A stretch of DNA of 64,000 bases from Halovenus rubra (GTDB taxonomy: Archaea > Halobacteriota > Halobacteria > Halobacteriales > Haloarculaceae), in NCBI RefSeq assembly GCF_026586665.1, contig NZ_JAODIY010000001.1, positions 186,001-250,000 on the forward strand. Direction: 5' to 3'. This document shows, one piece after another, positions 4,504-51,205 of this stretch. The translations under genes were made by a program, and so were the position numbers. The notes beneath the pieces were generated by a model that made no database searches, was not told the origin of the DNA, and worked only from the letters and a program-made list of their open reading frames with translations. Each line of letters opens with the position of its first letter. Position 1 is the stretch's first letter.

Positions 4504-6831
4504 TTATATTCGGGAGAGTAACTCTCTCAGCAGTTTCCGTGCTTGTGTCTTGTCCAGTGGGTCGTTCCCGTTCCCACAGTGGGGTGACTGGACGCAAGCT
4601 GGACAGCCAGTTTCGCAGGGACACTCTGTGAGCAACTCCTCCGTTTCGCCCATCAGCGCCTCGATGCGGTCATAGCCTGTTCGCGTGAGACCGACACCGC
4701 CGGGGTAACCGTCGTAGATGAAGATGGTGCTCTGGTCGGTATGGGGATGATATGGAGTCGAGAGCCCACCGATATCGCGCCGGTCACAGACCAACTGGAG
4801 TGGAAAAAGCGAAATCATGGCATGCTCGGCAGCATGAATCGCGCCGGCAAAACTCCCATCGGTTGCTCGTATCGTCTGCTCTACGTCTGTCGGGACCGTA
4901 AAGTATAGCGCTCGCGTCGAAAGCGTCGTTTCTGGAAGCGACAGGGAATCCTGCCCAAGCGTTTCGCCGCTGCGCCGGTCACGACGTTCGAACCCTGTAA
5001 TCTGCTTGCGCATCGTCACATCTGCGAACCTGATGGACACGTCGTCCCGCGTCGAGAGCGTCGTTTCCTCGCGGTCGTCTTCGACGGTTATTGACTTCTC
5101 GTGTAGTACCTGCGTGTAGTAATCTACACGGGTCGGCCGCAGCTCCGCTCGGTCCCGTTTCAGGTCGAGTCGCTCTACCTCGTAGGTTGTCCCCTGGTGG
5201 TGGTAAACTGCGCCGGTATGGGCGTCTCGGAGTGTGTCACCAAACGAGAGCGAGCCGATGCGCTCGTCGCGGCTAGCGTCGATAAGCGTTATCTCACGCT
5301 CGTCAATTGTCCGGAGACTCATCTCGTGTTGGGGACTCCCGTCGCCTGCTTTCGTCCAGCGTATCCCGTCGTCAGTCTGCTGGCGGTCAAGCAACCCCTC
5401 GTCAGTGAGCGTGGCGACGTGCTCGGGGAACGACTCGCCGAAGTGGTCTTCATCGGCAGGGCAGAGCCATGACTCGGTGGCGGCTGCCCTGACGTGTTTG
5501 GGAAGCAACTGGTCGTTGTCAGGGTTAGCGACTGCACGTTCGGGAGTTCCCTCGAAAAACTCTCCAGGATGACGCATAACGTACTGGTCGAGCTGGTCCT
5601 CGCCGGCGACCAACACAACCAGACTTGGCTCCTCGCCCCGTCCCGCTCGCCCCGCTTGCTGATAGGTCGCCATCCGCGTTCCGGGGTACCCATCGAGGAT
5701 GACTGCGTCCAGCCCGCCGATATCGACGCCGAGCTCCAGTGCGTTCGTACTCCAGACCCCACGTATCTCGCCGCTGTGGAGCCCTTCTTCGATTTCCTCT
5801 CGTCGGTCCTGTGGGAGTGCGGCCTGATAGGCGGCGATGCTGTCGGCGAGTGTGTGTTCTCCGCGTTCGCGGAGGGCTTTTTTACTGTCCGTCGCGTACC
5901 GCTCGGCAGCCTGACGCGCACGGGTAAACACCGCTGTCTGGGACCCCCGACTCACCAGGTCGACAAACAGCCGCTTGGTCTCTGTGTGACTGGACCGACG
6001 GTTACCGTGGCCGGTCGTCCCACCCGACTCACTGTACTCTGGTGGATTCCAGAACAGCCAATGTGTTGGCCCGGTCGCGCTCGTGTCGTCATCGATTAGC
6101 CTGAATGACGCGGGTGGCTGACCGGTGACAGTCGCGGCGTGTTCGATGGGATTTTCGATAGTTGCCGAGCAACAGACGTACTGTGGGTCAGTATCGAACT
6201 CTCGGCAAAGGCGCGCAAGGCGGCGAAACACCAGTCCGACGTGGCTACCGAAAACGCCGCGATACTCGTGGACCTCATCCAGCACGACCGTCGAGAGGTT
6301 CTCGAACAACCAGTCCCAGAGCCGCCGAGCATGCGGGAGGAGGCCGTAATGAAGCATGTCTGGCGTCATAAGCACGAGCGTTGGCCGACGGTCTCTGACT
6401 GCCTGTTTTTCTTGACGGGAGAGACGGCCGGTGTACTGGTCGACAGTGACCGCCGTCCCAAAGCCCAGTGAACGGGCCAACGCCGACAGTGTCTCCTCTT
6501 GATCGTTGATAAGCGCCACCTGCGGCGCGATATACAGCGTTGTCGCCCCTGCTGACAGTGCACGCTCAAAAGCCGGGACGGTGTACGCGAGGCTCTTCCC
6601 GCTAGCTGTCGGCGTTGCGAGAACGACGTTTTTGCCTGTCCGGATGGCGTCGATGGCATCGGCTTGGTGCTGGTACAGGTCGGTGATGCCGTGGTCGTCG
6701 AGTGCGCGCTCGACTCTGGAGGCGATATCGACTGCCCGAGTATTGGCCTCGCGGCCGGAGACGACACGGTGCGTTTCAACCTGTCCGCTCTCACCGGACT
6801 GCTCTGTCAGCCACGAGATAGTCTCGTCCAC
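4504..6831 (-). CDS. DEAD/DEAH helicase of the Hrq1/MrfA type with DUF1998 zinc region
   Basis: A 775-residue superfamily 2 helicase. Seen motifs: Q-like region YQHQADAI (53-60), Walker A ATPTASGKS (72-80), DEVH box (185-188), SAT (222-224), motif V TNALELGVDIGG (about 355-366) and motif VI QQAGRAGRG (about 385). The C-terminus carries the cysteine cluster CPCETGCPACVQSPHC (737-752), the zinc site of the DUF1998/MrfA domain. Hrq1/MrfA helicases are 3'-5' DNA helicases involved in repair of mitomycin-type damage and crosslinks; the same job is inferred here. It is divergent from the threonine-synthase-like gene, with 155 bases between them. Confidence 0.9.
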   Translation of the reverse strand: MDETISWLTEQSGESGQVETHRVVSGREANTRAVDIASRVERALDDHGITDLYQHQADAIDAIRTGKNVVLATPTASGKSLAYTVPAFERALSAGATTLYIAPQVALINDQEETLSALARSLGFGTAVTVDQYTGRLSRQEKQAVRDRRPTLVLMTPDMLHYGLLPHARRLWDWLFENLSTVVLDEVHEYRGVFGSHVGLVFRRLARLCREFDTDPQYVCCSATIENPIEHAATVTGQPPASFRLIDDDTSATGPTHWLFWNPPEYSESGGTTGHGNRRSSHTETKRLFVDLVSRGSQTAVFTRARQAAERYATDSKKALRERGEHTLADSIAAYQAALPQDRREEIEEGLHSGEIRGVWSTNALELGVDIGGLDAVILDGYPGTRMATYQQAGRAGRGEEPSLVVLVAGEDQLDQYVMRHPGEFFEGTPERAVANPDNDQLLPKHVRAAATESWLCPADEDHFGESFPEHVATLTDEGLLDRQQTDDGIRWTKAGDGSPQHEMSLRTIDEREITLIDASRDERIGSLSFGDTLRDAHTGAVYHHQGTTYEVERLDLKRDRAELRPTRVDYYTQVLHEKSITVEDDREETTLSTRDDVSIRFADVTMRKQITGFERRDRRSGETLGQDSLSLPETTLSTRALYFTVPTDVEQTIRATDGSFAGAIHAAEHAMISLFPLQLVCDRRDIGGLSTPYHPHTDQSTIFIYDGYPGGVGLTRTGYDRIEALMGETEELLTECPCETGCPACVQSPHCGNGNDPLDKTQARKLLRELLSRI

Positions 6832-6986
6832 GTTAGGGCGTTGCGGCTGGACTCTCCAGAACGTTTCCCTTCTGAGAGTATTACAACCGCTTTCTTTGCT
6901 GTCAGCCCCCTGCCAAAACAGAGCCTGCGCCCCGACAACGGAGAACGAGGGACAGGTCTTAGTCGCCCGGGTCCTGAAGCGGCGAT

Positions 6987-8159
6987 ATGGAGACGACAGA
7001 GGGATTTACCGGACTTCGTTGCCTATCCTGTGACAATCTCGCCGACGGCACCGAGAATCATTGTCCAGAGTGTGGCGGCATACTCGACCCCAGCTACGAG
7101 ACGGATGCACTCGAACATGCTCACGATAACCTTGACAGCGACTCGGGCTCGGGGCTTCCCGACGCTATCCTCCCGTTTGCGAGTGAAGACCTCATCACGC
7201 TCGGTGAGGGTGGTGTCACTCTTGTCGAGTGCCCGTCGCTTGCCAACAAGTTAGATGTCGGCCGTGTTGTGGTTGCCGACGAGGGGCACAATCCGACGGG
7301 CGGTGTGGTCGACCGTGAGTTTGCTGTCGCGGTGACGGCGGCGCGTATGTCGGAGGCCGAGACGGTCGCGCTTCCGACAACAGGGAACGGGGGGCAGGCC
7401 GCTGCCGCCTATGCCGCTCGCGCGGGCCTTGACGTTGAGTGTTTCGTTCCCTCCCGGTGTGTCTTTGCGAACAAGGCCATGATAAACGTCCACGGCGGCG
7501 AGATGTCGGTTATCGGTGGACGGTATCCCGACGCAGTCGAGGCCTTCACGGACGCAAACGAGGACGAAGACTGGTACTCGCTGGCTCCATTCGGGACACC
7601 CTACCGCCACGAAGGAGCAAAGACACTTGCCTATGACCTCTATACAGCACTTGCCGGTGTCCCCGATGCTGTCGTCCACCCGACCGCTCACGGGCTGGGA
7701 CTATTCGGCCTCGCCAAAGGGTTCGGTGAACTCACCTCGACGGGTACTATCGACGGCGAACCCGAACTTTACGCGGCACAACCCGAGGGCTGTGCACCGC
7801 TGGTTACTGCCGTTGAGGAGGGTGACGATACCCCTGGGCCTGTCGAGTATCCCGACACAATCTGTGGTGCGCTTGAGGTGCCAGACCCTGCCGGGGGGCA
7901 ACTCGCACTGGAGGGTATCGAGACGACTGCGGGCGGCGCAGTTGCGGTTGAGGATGATGCGATTCTGGACGGTTCCGCTTCGCTCGCAGCCACGGGAGTA
8001 CCACTGAGTGCGACCGGTGGCACTGCGGTGGCCGGGACAGAGCAGTTGGCTGACGATGGAGTCTTTGACACCGATGATGTTGTCGTCCTTGTCAACCCGA
8101 CCACGGCAAATCGTGAGGCCGACATCCTCCGGAGTCACTTGATGAAACAAGGTATCTGA
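6987..8159 (+). CDS. Threonine-synthase-like fold protein lacking the PLP lysine
   Basis: A 390-residue type II PLP-fold protein. An N-terminal zinc knuckle (C12, C15, C26, C29), as in archaeal threonine synthases, is followed by HNPTGGVVDREF at 101-112, the substrate/PLP motif usually read NPTGSFKDR. The Schiff-base lysine is replaced by Val108. The phosphate loop TTGNGGQAAAAYAARAG (131-147) is close to normal, whereas the second half has HPTAHGLGLFGLAKGF where the family has a Gly-rich PVGGG loop. Without the lysine it should not catalyse standard PLP chemistry, so a non-catalytic or altered role is inferred. A GCS2-like ligase follows after 70 bases. Confidence 0.85.
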   Translation: METTEGFTGLRCLSCDNLADGTENHCPECGGILDPSYETDALEHAHDNLDSDSGSGLPDAILPFASEDLITLGEGGVTLVECPSLANKLDVGRVVVADEGHNPTGGVVDREFAVAVTAARMSEAETVALPTTGNGGQAAAAYAARAGLDVECFVPSRCVFANKAMINVHGGEMSVIGGRYPDAVEAFTDANEDEDWYSLAPFGTPYRHEGAKTLAYDLYTALAGVPDAVVHPTAHGLGLFGLAKGFGELTSTGTIDGEPELYAAQPEGCAPLVTAVEEGDDTPGPVEYPDTICGALEVPDPAGGQLALEGIETTAGGAVAVEDDAILDGSASLAATGVPLSATGGTAVAGTEQLADDGVFDTDDVVVLVNPTTANREADILRSHLMKQGI

Positions 8160-15909: not shown

Positions 15910-16458
15910 TTACAGTGACGTGTCGGCCTCGACGATTTCGTAGTCGGTAATTTCGGCGGCTTCTTCACCGAAACCCCCCGGATACGCAACCTCGAACGCC
16001 CACGTTTTACCTGCTGACCAATTGTTGATGTTATCCAAAAACGTCTCTGCCAGCGTGTCACCCTTGTAGAACTCTACCACAACTTGGGCATATGAGAGTT
16101 CGTCATCGCTGACGTTCTTGGCTTTGCCTTCAATCACCACAGACTCGCTCATTTCGCCTTCATACTTGCGTACTAGCTCATGCGACAAAACTTCAATCTT
16201 GTCTGAGGAAACATCACTGTCACCTCCACTGTCGGAAGTACTGGTTTCACTACTGCCATCCCCACTGTCGGAAGTACTGGTTCCACTACTGCCATCCCCA
16301 CTGTCGGAAGTACTGGTTCCACTACTGTCATCCCCACTGTCGGAAGGACTGGTTTTTTCCTCGACGTCGCTGCCGTCGTCTCCGCTACACCCTGCAAGGG
16401 CAAGACTACTGGCAGTCGTTCCGAGGACCGCAAGGAGTCGTCGTCGGTTTAGTTCCAT
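15910..16458 (-). CDS. Twin-arginine lipoprotein with FxLYD-like domain and Ser/Asp/Gly repeats
   Basis: A 182-residue secreted lipoprotein. The signal NRRRLLAVLGTTASSLALAG ends in a lipobox Cys at residue 23. A spacer of tandem 12-residue repeats (SDSGDGSSGTST and variants, about 38-82) is followed by a beta-rich domain (about 88-180: SESVVIEGKAKNVSDDELSY, AQVVVEFYKGDTLAETF), the pattern of FxLYD domains. The repeats probably form a flexible acidic stalk between membrane anchor and domain at the cell surface. It lies in an accessory patch flanked by gene remnants, and its AT content is higher than its neighbours'. Confidence 0.75.
   Translation of the reverse strand: MELNRRRLLAVLGTTASSLALAGCSGDDGSDVEEKTSPSDSGDDSSGTSTSDSGDGSSGTSTSDSGDGSSETSTSDSGGDSDVSSDKIEVLSHELVRKYEGEMSESVVIEGKAKNVSDDELSYAQVVVEFYKGDTLAETFLDNINNWSAGKTWAFEVAYPGGFGEEAAEITDYEIVEADTSL
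16226..16352 (-). repeat. 36-bp tandem repeats inside the lipoprotein gene
   Basis: Three nearly perfect 36-bp units (starting 16226, 16262 and 16298) and half of a fourth (16334) encode the acidic 12-residue repeats of the lipoprotein stalk. The unit length is a multiple of three, so copy number can change by slippage without breaking the frame. Confidence 0.9.
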
Positions 16459-46654: not shown

Positions 46655-47149
46655 TCACGGAACCGTCCCGTCCATCGACCCGCGGTACCACCGTCCCGTC
46701 TCCTTTTGGCAGTTAGTGCAGTAGGCGACGACTGATTCTCCGTCTTCACCGCCTTCCAGCTGGCTGTCCGTTCGCTCACCGCAATCTGAGCAGTGTCGTA
46801 ACGTGACCTGCTCGCCGTATTCAAGAGGCGCACCGAGCGCAAGCGCACGCACTAGCTCGCCGCTACGATTCCAGCCGCGCTGGAACTCCTCTCGGTCGAA
46901 CCGAATAACCTCGCCCGCGGCAACCTCAACGGAGCCGCCTTCGGTCTCGAACGTTGCCGTCCCAGCGAGCACGTAAAACGTCTCTTCTTGTACCTCATGG
47001 TTGTGATAGGCAAAGGCAAAGCTATCGCCGGGTTCGAGTTCGTAGTAGTTGAGAGCAAGGTCAGTCAATCCCAGTGGCGCGGTGAGACTCCGCATCACTG
47101 CCGCCGGCTGGATGCTGTTTTCGACGTCGTCGACACAGACTTTCTCCAT
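46655..47149 (-). CDS. Cupin-domain protein with C-terminal zinc ribbon
   Basis: A 164-residue protein. The cupin fold has HNHEVQEETFYVLAGTATFE (metal-binding HxH and Glu at about 49-57) and GEVIRFDREEFQRGWNRSGE, where the second motif His is replaced. A zinc ribbon follows: CSDCG (about 119-123) and CTNCQ (about 144-148). Cupin-ribbon fusions are common in haloarchaea; function unknown. It follows the ileS repeat array in the same orientation after a terminator-like hairpin. Confidence 0.8.
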   Translation of the reverse strand: MEKVCVDDVENSIQPAAVMRSLTAPLGLTDLALNYYELEPGDSFAFAYHNHEVQEETFYVLAGTATFETEGGSVEVAAGEVIRFDREEFQRGWNRSGELVRALALGAPLEYGEQVTLRHCSDCGERTDSQLEGGEDGESVVAYCTNCQKETGRWYRGSMDGTVP

Positions 47150-47235: not shown

Positions 47236-47460
47236 TTACGTCGTTACTTCACTTACCGGCTTGATTGCGATTTCCATTTCGACGCCTTCGACGGTCCAGG
47301 ACTCGCGGTGACCGTCTTCGAGGGCTCCAAAGTCGGCGGCTCTGACTTCCTGTCCAATCAGGGCCTCGTGTTCGCGGACGAGGCCAGCGACGCGGTCGTC
47401 TTTCACGTCGAGGTCGACCTCGATTTCTTCCTCGATATCGAGTTCGAGGTTCTTGCGCAT
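47236..47460 (-). pseudogene. Copy 3 of the ileS 3' end (75 codons)
   Basis: Encodes MRKNLELDIEEEIEVDLDVK to a final IKPVSEVTT-stop. It differs from the true C-terminus in a few positions (EALIGQ for EDLIGQ, SEVTT for SEATA). It is followed by unique sequence and a terminator-like hairpin, so it may descend from the original gene end. Its ATG is preceded by GGTGG eight bases upstream, so translation as a free 74-residue fragment is possible but unproven. Confidence 0.85.
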
Positions 47461-47594
47461 CTCGCTGCCACCTTTTTCTTCGTCGTGTTCCCTCGCTCGC
47501 TGCGGGAACCGCTCCTCGAAAAACGTGGGTGAAAAATGCTGCTCGCGGGCACAGCCCGCTCGCAGTGAACCACGCCGAAGGCGTGGATATCGAC

Positions 47595-47819
47595 CTAAGC
47601 CGTCGCTTCGCTCACCGGTTTGATTGCGATTTCCATTTCGACGCCTTCGACGGTCCAGGACTCGCGGTGACCGTCTTCGAGGGCTCCAAAGTCGGCGGCT
47701 CTGACTTCCTGCCCAATCAGGTCCTCGTGTTCGCGGACGAGGCCAGCGACGCGGTCGTCTTTCACGTCGAGGTCGACCTCGATTTCTTCCTCGATATCGA
47801 GTTCGAGGTTCTTGCGCAT
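47595..47819 (-). pseudogene. Copy 2 of the ileS 3' end (75 codons)
   Basis: Encodes the same 74 residues as the true ileS C-terminus, MRKNLELDIEEEIEVDLDVK to IKPVSEATA-stop, without a single amino-acid difference. It is flanked on both sides by the 134-bp spacer. Near-identity with copy 1 points to recent duplication or ongoing gene conversion. Confidence 0.9.
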
Positions 47820-47953
47820 CTCGCTGCCACCTTTTTCTTCGTCGTGTTCCCTCGCTCGCTGCGGGAACCGCTCCTCGAAAAACGTGGGTGAAAAATGCTG
47901 CTCGCGGGCACAGCCCGCTCGCAGTGAACCACGCCGAAGGCGTGGATATCGAC

Positions 47954-50900
47954 CTAAGCCGTCGCTTCGCTCACCGGTTTGATTGCGATTTCCATTTCGA
48001 CGCCTTCGACGGTCCAGGACTCGCGGTGACCGTCTTCGAGGGCTCCAAAGTCGGCGGCTCTGACTTCCTGCCCAATCAGGTCCTCGTGTTCGCGGACGAG
48101 GCCAGCGACGCGGTCGTCTTTCACGTCGAGGTCGACCTCGATTTCTTCCTCGATATCGAGTTCGAGGTTCTTGCGCATCTCCTGGACGCGGCGGATAACT
48201 TCACGGGCGTAGCCCTCACTTTCGATGTCCTCGGTGAGGTCGGTATCGACGTAGACGACGCCGGTCGAATCCAGTGCCTCGAACTCGGTCGCGGAGACGC
48301 CGTCCGGCGTCTCGGTGACGACTTCGACCATTTCGTCGGTCAGCTCTACGTCCATGCCTGTCTCGTCCTCAACGGCAGTTTCCAATGCATCAATCGTCGG
48401 GTCGTCGACGCGTGCCCCGTTGAGTGCGTTCATCACGGGACCGGCATCTCCACCGAAGGCCGGCCCAAGTTCAGACATATCTGCAGTCGCGGAGTAGCGA
48501 ATCTCGCCCCACTCGTCGTCGGGACCGAGTACACGGACGTTCCGTGTATTGAGCCGCTCGGACACGAGGTCAGCCTGTGCCTCGACCGCCTCGGCCAGCG
48601 TCTCGCTGCCCGTGTCGACGACGACTTCCGGAACGGGCCAGCGCAATTTCCGCTCGGCCTGCTGGCGGGCGTTCGAGCCAGCCTCCTCGACAGCCCGCAC
48701 GACAGTAATCTCATCTTCGAGCTGTGGGTCCTGAAGCGCTGTGTCGGGCTCGGGCCAGTCGGCCATATGAACTGTCGGATGCCCAGTGTCGCCAGTGAGC
48801 GCGCCGTAAAGCTCTTCGGCAACGAGTGGCGCAAACGGTGCCATCAGCGTAACAGTCTCTTCGAGCACACGGTAGAGCGTTGCGTAGGCTGCTCGCTTGG
48901 AGGGTGAGTCAGCTTCGTCCCACATCCGCTCACGGACTACCTGAACGTAAAAGCGGGAGACATCTTCGACGATGAACTCAAGCAACTCTTCGACCGCATG
49001 GTCGTTTGCGAACCCTTCAAGCTCCTCCGTAACCGTCTCGACGGTCGTAGCGAGCCGTGATAGAATCCACTCGTCGGCGAGTTCAAGGTCGTCTTCGACC
49101 GCATCGATGCTCGTCGTTGCAGGGTCGAAGCCGTCGGCCTGCATGTACGGCAACGGGAAGCGGACGACGTTCCAGAGGATGTTCAGTTGGCGTTGCATCT
49201 TCTGCGTTCCCTCCCAGGAGAACTGCATATCCTCGCCACGAGGGTTGACCGACAGAAGGAACAGTCGCAGCGGGTCAACACCGTGTTTGTCGATAACGTT
49301 ATGCGGGTCGATGCGGATATCCTTGGATTTCGACATCGCGCGGCCATCCGGCATCAGCGCGTGGCCGTGCATTAGCAAGTTGTTGTACGGCACTTGGTCG
49401 ACTGACACTGTCCCCATCCCAAGCTGTGACCAGAACCAGCCACGGGTTTGGTCGTGAGCCTCGATGACGAGGTCTGCCGGCCAGAGGTCGTCGTGTTCGG
49501 TCTCGTCGCTTGGGTAGCCAAGCGTTCCCCACGAGGCGACCGAGGAGTCCAGCCAGACGTCAAACACGTCGGGGACGCGCTTGTAGATGATGCCATCTTC
49601 GGTGATAGTCAGGTCGTCGACGGTCCCTTTATGAAGGTCGACGGTTTTTGGGTCAATCTCTTGGTCGACGCGCTCGGCGAGTTCCTCACGGTCGCCAACA
49701 ACGATAGCGTCGTCCATGCTGCCACTCCAGTCTATCGACTTGCCGTCACTGGTTTCTGTCGGCAGCCAGATGGGAATCGGGATACCCCAGTAGCGCTGGC
49801 GTGAGACGTTCCAGTCGGGAGCTTCTTCGACGAAATCCCGGAAGCGGTTCTCCCGTGCCCACTGGGGGTTCCAGTCGCTCTCTTCGATGTTTGCCAGCAG
49901 GTCCTCTTTGACGTCCGTGACGGTGATGAACCACTGGTCGGTAACCATCTGAACGATACCGGTGTCACACCGCCAGCAGTGGCCGTAGCTGTGTTGGGTC
50001 TCGTCAGCCTGAAGCATCAGCCCCTTTGCTTCGAGGTCGGCGATAATACCATCATTTGCGTCACGGACAAACTCACCCTCGTACGCCCCGGCGGCCTCGG
50101 TGTAGACGCCATTGCTCTCTATGGGACAGAATATATTGAGGCCAGCTTCCTCACCGCGGGCGAAGTCTTCCTCACCGTGGCCGGGCGCGGAGTGGACCAG
50201 CCCTGTCCGGTCGGCTTCAACGTAGTCAGCGGTATAGACCTGGCACGCACCCTCGGAGTCAGGGTGGTCAGGTACTTCCGTTGCAAGTGGGTGGTCGTAC
50301 TCCCAGCCGACCATCTCGCTGCCCGTGATTTCCTCGATAATTTCGAACTCCTCGTAGCCGCCTTGTTCGACGACCTCCTCGACGCAGGCCTCGGCAACCC
50401 AGAGGTCTTCTTCGGTGCCATCAGCGGCGGTGACACGGACCTGTTGATATGCCAAGTCGCCGTCGACAGCGACGAACGTGTTTGCCGGTATCGTCCACGG
50501 CGTGGTGGTCCAGATAACGAGGTAACTGTCGCGGTCGCCTCCGGATTGGAGTGGGAACTTGACGTAAATCGAGGGGTCGTGCACGTCTTCGTACTCAACC
50601 TCGTTTTTTGCGATAGCTGTCTCACATCGGGGGCACTGCGTAATTGAGCGCTGGCCTTGCTCAACGAGGTTACGGTCGTTAGCCTGCGAAAAGCCCCACC
50701 ACGCGGCTTCCATGTACTCCGGTTCGACCGTCCGATACGGGTCGTCCCAGTCCATCCAGACACCCATCGACTTGAAATCTGCCGTCAGCTGCTGGAGGCT
50801 GTCCTCGGCGAACTCGCGGCAGTCGTCGACGAAGTTGTCGACACCGTAGTTCTCGATGTCTTTTTTATTCTCGAAGTCGAGTTCTTCCTCAACTTTCGTC

Positions 50901-51205
50901 TCGATTGGCAGACCGTGCATGTCATAGCCCGGCCGGTCGTAGACATCGTGGCCGCACATCCGCTTGTAGCGGACATAACAGTCTTTGAGGCTCTTATTCA
51001 GGGCGTGCCCCATGTGTGCCGAGCCAGAGGTGTACGGCGGTCCGTCAAGGAAGTAGTACGATTCCTCGTCGGCCCGGTGTTCTTTGGTCCGTTCGTAGGC
51101 ATTGACGGCTTCCCAGTGGTCGAAGACACGGTCCTCTACCGCATCGGGGTCGTACTGGTCGCCGACCTGGCCGAACCGGCTGTTGTCCGTTGCGTCATCG
51201 CTCAT
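47954..51205 (-). CDS. ileS: Isoleucine--tRNA ligase
   Basis: A 1083-residue class I synthetase charging tRNA-Ile, full length for the archaeal/eukaryotic type. The HIGH motif is HMGH (64-67, in YTSGSAHMGHALNKSLKD) and KMSKS is AMSKS (about 623-627, in GRAMSKSKDIRIDP). The CP1 editing domain lies between (about 190-420) with TTTPWTIPANTF. The anticodon-binding domain includes RFYVQVVRERMWDEADSPSK, and the C-terminal 75 codons, starting at MRKNLELDIEEEIEVD, are the part repeated downstream. No zinc-ribbon tail is present. It is followed by the repeat array rather than by another gene. Confidence 0.97.
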   Translation of the reverse strand: MSDDATDNSRFGQVGDQYDPDAVEDRVFDHWEAVNAYERTKEHRADEESYYFLDGPPYTSGSAHMGHALNKSLKDCYVRYKRMCGHDVYDRPGYDMHGLPIETKVEEELDFENKKDIENYGVDNFVDDCREFAEDSLQQLTADFKSMGVWMDWDDPYRTVEPEYMEAAWWGFSQANDRNLVEQGQRSITQCPRCETAIAKNEVEYEDVHDPSIYVKFPLQSGGDRDSYLVIWTTTPWTIPANTFVAVDGDLAYQQVRVTAADGTEEDLWVAEACVEEVVEQGGYEEFEIIEEITGSEMVGWEYDHPLATEVPDHPDSEGACQVYTADYVEADRTGLVHSAPGHGEEDFARGEEAGLNIFCPIESNGVYTEAAGAYEGEFVRDANDGIIADLEAKGLMLQADETQHSYGHCWRCDTGIVQMVTDQWFITVTDVKEDLLANIEESDWNPQWARENRFRDFVEEAPDWNVSRQRYWGIPIPIWLPTETSDGKSIDWSGSMDDAIVVGDREELAERVDQEIDPKTVDLHKGTVDDLTITEDGIIYKRVPDVFDVWLDSSVASWGTLGYPSDETEHDDLWPADLVIEAHDQTRGWFWSQLGMGTVSVDQVPYNNLLMHGHALMPDGRAMSKSKDIRIDPHNVIDKHGVDPLRLFLLSVNPRGEDMQFSWEGTQKMQRQLNILWNVVRFPLPYMQADGFDPATTSIDAVEDDLELADEWILSRLATTVETVTEELEGFANDHAVEELLEFIVEDVSRFYVQVVRERMWDEADSPSKRAAYATLYRVLEETVTLMAPFAPLVAEELYGALTGDTGHPTVHMADWPEPDTALQDPQLEDEITVVRAVEEAGSNARQQAERKLRWPVPEVVVDTGSETLAEAVEAQADLVSERLNTRNVRVLGPDDEWGEIRYSATADMSELGPAFGGDAGPVMNALNGARVDDPTIDALETAVEDETGMDVELTDEMVEVVTETPDGVSATEFEALDSTGVVYVDTDLTEDIESEGYAREVIRRVQEMRKNLELDIEEEIEVDLDVKDDRVAGLVREHEDLIGQEVRAADFGALEDGHRESWTVEGVEMEIAIKPVSEATA

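What the first reader, a model, noticed from the sequence alone, without database searches (positions are those of the whole stretch)
47236..48178. Tandem triplication of the ileS 3' end with a hairpin-bearing spacer
The last 225 bases of ileS occur three times at an exact 359-bp period. The two 134-bp spacers look identical and carry two GC hairpins, one followed by a T-run. The spacer is not part of ileS, so each unit is a composite (spacer plus gene end), as if a terminator-like or mobile sequence had captured and amplified the gene end. Copy 2 has no amino-acid change, while copy 3 has drifted. Each copy keeps an ATG (MRKN...) with GGTGG eight bases upstream, so free 74-residue C-terminal fragments might be made. 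An essential synthetase gene with spare 3' ends is also a setting for repair by gene conversion.
Basis: partly seen in the sequence, partly recalled or inferred. Interest (0 to 1): 0.75.

Follow-up and report, generated by a model that had tools for sequence, protein, structure and literature searches.

The report
Mobile terminator element duplicating gene tails
Behind the isoleucyl-tRNA synthetase gene of this salt-loving archaeon sits a short hairpin element that is scattered through most haloarchaeal genomes next to gene ends, and in more than a third of the copies examined it is flanked by duplicated copies of the end of its neighbouring gene, a pattern for which I found no description.

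Summary
Observation confirmed: the last 225 bp of ileS occur three times at a 359-bp period with two identical 134-bp spacers. The organism belongs to the genus of Halovenus. The spacer is not ordinary intergenic DNA: it is a copy of an unlisted three-hairpin element ("E", about 80-170 bp) found in 109 of 146 related genomes, on haloarchaeal plasmids, in no sampled genome outside the haloarchaeal order and in no Rfam family.

E lies just behind genes in a fixed orientation and carries T5-C tracts on both strands (terminator-like). In 43 of 113 loci it is flanked by direct repeats of the neighbouring gene's 3' end, 22-227 bp, versus 4 of 222 control positions. In an independent set, tails are duplicated at 3 of 7 gene ends with E and 1 of 319 without.

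The two tails often differ like two working alleles: mismatches by codon position are 25/19/103, and stop codons often differ. So [tail+E] units probably spread by recombination at gene ends, then amplify by unequal exchange. How a new E-tail junction forms is not shown.

The parts
47954..51205 (-). ileS, isoleucyl-tRNA synthetase, 1083 aa, intact
   Evidence: ORF; Pfam tRNA-synt_1 2e-114, Anticodon_1, DUF5915
47954..48178 (-). tail X1: last 225 bp of ileS, stop TAG
47820..47953 (-). E copy 1 (134 bp) directly behind the ileS stop codon
   Evidence: identical to second copy; nhmmer core 47827-47895, E=4e-22
47929..47945 (-). hairpin hp3 of E copy 1
   Evidence: fold
47898..47924 (-). hairpin hp2 of E copy 1, followed in gene sense by TTTTTC
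   Evidence: fold
47827..47887 (-). hairpin hp1 of E copy 1, with T5 tracts in both outer arms; ends in GGTGG in gene sense
   Evidence: fold; covariation of this helix across genomes
47595..47819 (-). tail X2, identical to X1; starts at GAGATG right behind E
   Evidence: 0 of 225 mismatches
47461..47594 (-). E copy 2, identical to copy 1
   Evidence: nhmmer core 47468-47536
47236..47460 (-). tail X3: 10 mismatches to X1/X2, 8 in the last 27 nt, stop TAA; followed by native sequence without E
46655..47149 (-). downstream neighbour, cupin-domain protein (context only)
   Evidence: Pfam Cupin_2 1.2e-11

Best explanation
The spacer is a copy of a dispersed haloarchaeal element E: a three-hairpin, bidirectional terminator-like sequence that lies behind genes in a fixed orientation (hp3 towards the gene, GGTGG end away from it). 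Shown: E is dispersed, its hairpins are kept by compensating changes, and it is strongly and repeatedly associated with duplication of the 3' end of the gene it follows. Inferred mechanism: the unit that spreads is [gene tail + E]. Once E is flanked by two copies of a conserved gene's tail, that stretch has homology on both sides of E and can enter the same gene of another strain or species by ordinary homologous recombination. The recipient gene keeps a complete 3' end plus E, and its own old tail with its own stop codon is left downstream as a relic. In the window the relic is X3; a later unequal exchange between X3 and the ileS tail doubled the X-E unit, giving identical X1-E-X2-E and a diverged X3. 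E most likely serves as a transcription terminator for ileS. How a new E-to-gene junction first forms is not shown.
For: E in 109/146 related genomes; near-identical E copies with unrelated flanks within one genome (G030 three copies 98.8-99.4% over 166-176 bp). Tail repeats at 43/113 E loci versus 4/222 controls, and at 3/7 gene ends with E versus 1/319 without. Repeat is the end of a gene on the hp3 side in 42/43 loci, often ending at the stop codon. The two tails differ mostly synonymously (25/19/103 by codon position) and often have different stop codons or last residues, as two working alleles would. This genome has no other E, so E did not come from elsewhere in it. Arrays grow from a relic tail: in G054 spt5/nusG the junction equals that of a short relic in two sister species. 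Same ileS junction in three genera. TTTTTC tracts fit the Haloferax terminator motif (PMC7237163).
Against: No donor allele could be identified. Several tail pairs are 100% identical (L141, L190, L204), and purM pairs decay without codon bias, as local duplication would give. hemE in G064 and ileS in L039 show gene-E-tail-E, a plain tandem duplication. Repeat loci are not all independent (same genes in related genomes). Terminator function was not tested.
Confidence: 0.45

Rival explanations
1. Local tandem duplication: E sat behind the gene for a long time; hairpin-induced slippage or microhomology recombination between E's GGTGG end and a site upstream in the gene duplicates [tail+E] in place, and the outermost E is later truncated or lost, leaving gene-E-tail.
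For: gene-E-tail-E with both E present in G064 hemE, L039 ileS, and argF L176/L177; outer E partly deleted in G054 proS and G020 hemE; X1-E-X2-E in the window is itself a perfect duplication.
Against: In about half of the cases the homology of the outer tail stops within a few bp of the stop codon with no trace of E behind it; differing natural stop codons and mostly synonymous differences; the two E copies in L039 differ in all hairpins although the tails are 94% identical.
Confidence: 0.33
2. E is a transposon-like element that inserts with a long, variable target duplication of 22-227 bp (staggered breaks filled in, or break repair with E as filler).
For: E-free single-tail alleles in sister species at gatA (G066) and purM (G066, G041) against E plus 48-bp and 156-bp repeats in G054; near-identical E copies at unrelated loci.
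Against: Fixed orientation relative to the gene and end of homology at the stop codon are not expected of random insertion; the 'empty' alleles could be deletions between tails, since G041 purM keeps a hairpin remnant and the gatA allele keeps a partial tail repeat; dispersed copies in G030, G041 and G117 have no such repeats.
Confidence: 0.15
3. The extra tails are selected: either small C-terminal proteins are made from them or they are templates for repairing ileS by gene conversion.
For: Downstream tails usually keep frame and stop codon; X1 and X3 are nearly identical over the first 198 bp, as conversion would give.
Against: GGTGG before the ATG is the end of E, not a dedicated ribosome site; tails elsewhere are 22-227 bp and come from many unrelated genes, often without a start codon; close relatives lack the array.
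Confidence: 0.04
4. Assembly artefact of short reads.
For: The perfect 359-bp unit is longer than a short read.
Against: The third tail differs at 10 sites; equivalent arrays exist in single-contig genomes.
Confidence: 0.03

Closest known systems
REP / CGTC-tagged palindromic repeats (Di Nocera et al. 2013, PMC3733652; RepRanger survey, PMC12306157)
   Same: Short, non-coding, palindromic, intergenic, many copies; a CGTC lies next to the foot of hp1.
   Different: E is 80-170 bp with three hairpins and T tracts, and is tied to gene-tail repeats; neither paper's text mentions haloarchaeal names.
MITEs (non-autonomous DNA transposons)
   Same: Short, non-coding, dispersed, near-identical copies within a genome.
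   Different: No short fixed-length target duplication; repeats are 22-227 bp gene ends or absent. Terminal inverted repeats not established; no partner transposase found.
Archaeal T-tract terminators (Haloferax volcanii, PMC7237163)
   Same: T stretch ending in TC behind the gene, with hairpins.
   Different: Those are gene-specific signals; E is one dispersed element with T5-C on both strands.
Integrative elements that insert into gene 3' ends (tyrosine-integrase islands; from general knowledge)
   Same: Gene end rebuilt at one side, displaced copy of the end at the other side.
   Different: No integrase and no fixed attachment core; E is about 0.1 kb and the repeat length varies even within one gene.

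Membership tests
REP elements | single 20-40 bp palindrome | tested here: not met
   three hairpins over 80-170 bp
REP elements | GTAG or CGTC tag at one end of the stem | tested here: inconclusive
   TCGTCGGGT precedes the inner hp1 stem in most copies, but inside a larger stem
REP elements | associated RAYT (Y1) transposase | not tested
   no search made
MITE | dispersed near-identical non-coding copies with unrelated flanks | tested here: met
   G030, G041, G117
MITE | terminal inverted repeats | tested here: inconclusive
   AGCATCC at the left end; GGTGGNNGNG at the right end, GGTGGATGC in some copies
MITE | short fixed-length target site duplication | tested here: not met
   spanning repeats are 22-227 bp or absent
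Haloarchaeal T-tract terminator | T stretch with TC behind the gene | tested here: met
   TTTTTC in consensus on both strands; motif from PMC7237163
Haloarchaeal T-tract terminator | RNA 3' ends at the site | not testable with these tools
   needs RNA 3'-end data
Rfam RNA family | match to a covariance model | tested here: not met
   no E match in 8 loci up to E=1
Tyrosine-integrase island | element carries an integrase | tested here: not met
   in the window E is 134 bp and has no room for one

The most novel reading that the evidence does not exclude
E is a new class of mobile DNA: a hairpin terminator that travels as a small [gene tail + E] DNA unit, for example a circle closed between E's GGTGG end and a variable point inside the gene, and enters the same housekeeping gene of other species by homologous recombination, so that every insertion rebuilds the gene it lands in and leaves the old gene end behind.
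Probability: 0.2. Interest if true: 0.88.

Novelty: new variant of a known kind. Interest (0 to 1): 0.68.

Why it matters
A dispersed element that faces the end of its neighbouring gene, and that carries or provokes copies of that gene's 3' end, would explain recurrent tail duplications behind haloarchaeal housekeeping genes. If the recombination reading holds, it is a way for a non-coding element to spread between species while leaving essential genes intact, and it leaves readable scars of transfer (old tail, old stop codon) in the genome. Alleles with and without E in strain collections make this directly testable.

Tried and rejected
Rfam: no family. Phage records: none. Plasmid records: E present, intergenic; the 943-bp ileS array itself absent. 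I first read the E-free sister alleles of gatA and purM as true empty sites; hemE then showed that truncated alleles can arise by deletion, so I withdrew that as proof. Placing the tails of G023 and of the window by nearest relative found no donor. E elsewhere in this genome: nothing above noise. Literature searches for haloarchaeal repeats with gene-tail duplication found nothing; the library holds open-licence papers only.

Full report
What is in the window. ileS runs on the minus strand at 47954-51205. Reading in its direction, the gene ends with tail X1 and stop TAG, followed by a 134-bp spacer, tail X2, the same spacer, tail X3, and then sequence leading to a cupin gene at 46655-47149. 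X1 and X2 are identical, as are the two spacers; X3 has 10 mismatches, 8 of them in its last 27 nt, and uses TAA.

The spacer is a dispersed element, here called E. A search of 146 related genomes found it in 109, often in several copies and sometimes in tandem with periods other than 359. In this genome it occurs only at ileS. It is also on ten haloarchaeal plasmid records with no annotated gene under the match (contexts), in no phage record and in no Rfam family. In a sample of 295 genomes of the phylum, all 36 genomes with a match belong to the haloarchaeal order. Some genomes hold families of near-identical copies with unrelated flanks: three in G030 at 98.8-99.4% over 166-176 bp, others in G041 and G117. 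The copy at hemE of G020 is 95% identical to one at another locus of G075.

Anatomy of E. In gene sense it reads AGCATCC-hp3-GGTTCACC-hp2-CCTTTTTCGCCCACGTTTTTCGAGGAG-hp1-CGACGAAGAAAAAGGTGG-NNGNG. The window copy folds into three hairpins as DNA and as RNA. Stems vary in sequence but stay paired: for hp1, 97% of cells are paired, and the covariation score is 0.136 against 0.035 in shuffles and at most 0.056 in slid controls. hp2 has perfect arms averaging 6.1 nt against 2.6 in shuffles, in some 60 different sequences. Loops of the type CGNAG are concentrated on the gene-sense strand, 337 against 33, while flanking DNA is balanced, 230 against 243. From general knowledge, C-GNA-G loops are unusually stable in single-stranded DNA; whether that is the reason here is open. 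T5-C tracts on both strands match the Haloferax terminator motif (PMC7237163), so I read E as a bidirectional terminator. That is inference.

E and gene tails. I fetched 80 further loci. Direct repeats spanning E, one copy ending at E's GGTGG end, occur at 43 of 113 loci against 4 of 222 positions shifted by 900 bp, all four marginal (Fisher p about 5e-19). The repeats are 22-227 bp. In 42 of 43 loci an ORF on the hp3 side ends in or next to the repeat, in about half of them within some ten bp of its edge. Host genes recur in different genera: ileS, and, by my reading of the protein tails, argF, spt5/nusG, gatB, purM, a DHH gene, HMG-CoA synthase, pheT, proS, gatA, hemE and others. A less selected check used 326 gene ends in 56 haloarchaeal ileS neighbourhoods: tails are duplicated downstream at 3 of 7 ends with E and at 1 of 319 without. 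That set is centred on ileS, so it says little about other genes; 9 of 62 distinct ileS loci carry E or its left end.

What the two tails tell. In gapless comparisons mismatches fall 25, 19 and 103 on codon positions 1, 2 and 3, more synonymous than expected if one copy were simply decaying (p about 6e-7 against a 50% share; the 50% is my rough estimate). Downstream tails usually keep the frame and a stop, and the stop or last residues often differ in a natural way: LN* and LES* in gatB, ADDK* and VSDAEEDGAAEAEE* in a DHH gene, TGA and TAA, TAG and TGA. This fits two alleles of a working gene brought together by recombination. Against it, several pairs are identical, purM pairs look like neutral decay, and no donor could be named.

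Array dynamics. In genus g21, spt5/nusG of G054 has three E copies whose junction equals that of a short relic tail in G041 and G066; proS of G054 carries a fresh 192-bp duplication with much of the outer E deleted. In genus g4, hemE is gene-E-tail-E in G064, gene-E in G052, gene-E-tail-partial E in G020 and a remnant in G075. In H-GB1-1, ileS-E-tail-E has the same junction (GAGATGCGCAAG) as the window and G023, although the tails are only 65-75% identical between these genera, and its two E copies differ in every hairpin while the tails are 94% identical. E-free alleles at gatA and purM in sister species look like empty sites but could be deletions between the tails, so insertion with target duplication is not proven. 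In the window's own genus the two closest relatives have no E behind ileS, one has a full E, and others have remnants.

Reading for the window. The simplest history is: an ileS-tail plus E segment arrived by recombination (no other E exists in this genome, and X3 ends in a different but sensible allele), leaving ileS-E-X3; unequal exchange between X3 and the ileS tail then doubled the 359-bp unit. Shown: dispersal of E, its placement behind genes, its association with tail duplication, and the identities within the array. Inferred: arrival by recombination, the unequal exchange in this strain, and terminator function. Local tandem duplication followed by loss of the outer E is the strongest rival and may be the true origin in part of the loci.

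Novelty. E resembles REP elements and MITEs in being a short dispersed palindromic sequence, but defining features tested here are not met (size for REP; short fixed target duplication for MITE). The coupling to duplicated gene ends was not found in the literature searched, which covers open-licence papers only.

Noticed in passing
L039, about 6698-7241: Two E copies behind one ileS differ in the sequence of all three hairpins although the tails beside them are 94% identical: E hairpins turn over faster than the tails, by an unknown process.
   Followed up: partly
L048, L050, L076, L142: A second recurrent ileS junction (ATG..GAGATCGC) with tails of about 40 bp in three Natrinema species and in G067.
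   Followed up: partly
G054:C2:819106-819964: Six E-like hits at a spacing of about 154 bp, a longer array than the one in the window; host gene not identified.
   Followed up: no
all E loci: CGNAG loops lie almost only on the gene-sense strand of E (337 against 33).
   Followed up: partly
G041 and G030 E families (L015, L140, L145, L147, L158, L167, L168): Near-identical dispersed copies carry extra conserved flanks (TCAGTACAG on the left in G041, CTGTACTGA on the right in G030 and G117), which may be terminal inverted repeats of a longer form of E.
   Followed up: no
window 16226-16354: 36-bp tandem repeat, 3.6 copies, coding for GDGSSGTSTSDS repeats in a 182-aa predicted lipoprotein (15910-16458, minus strand).
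   Followed up: partly
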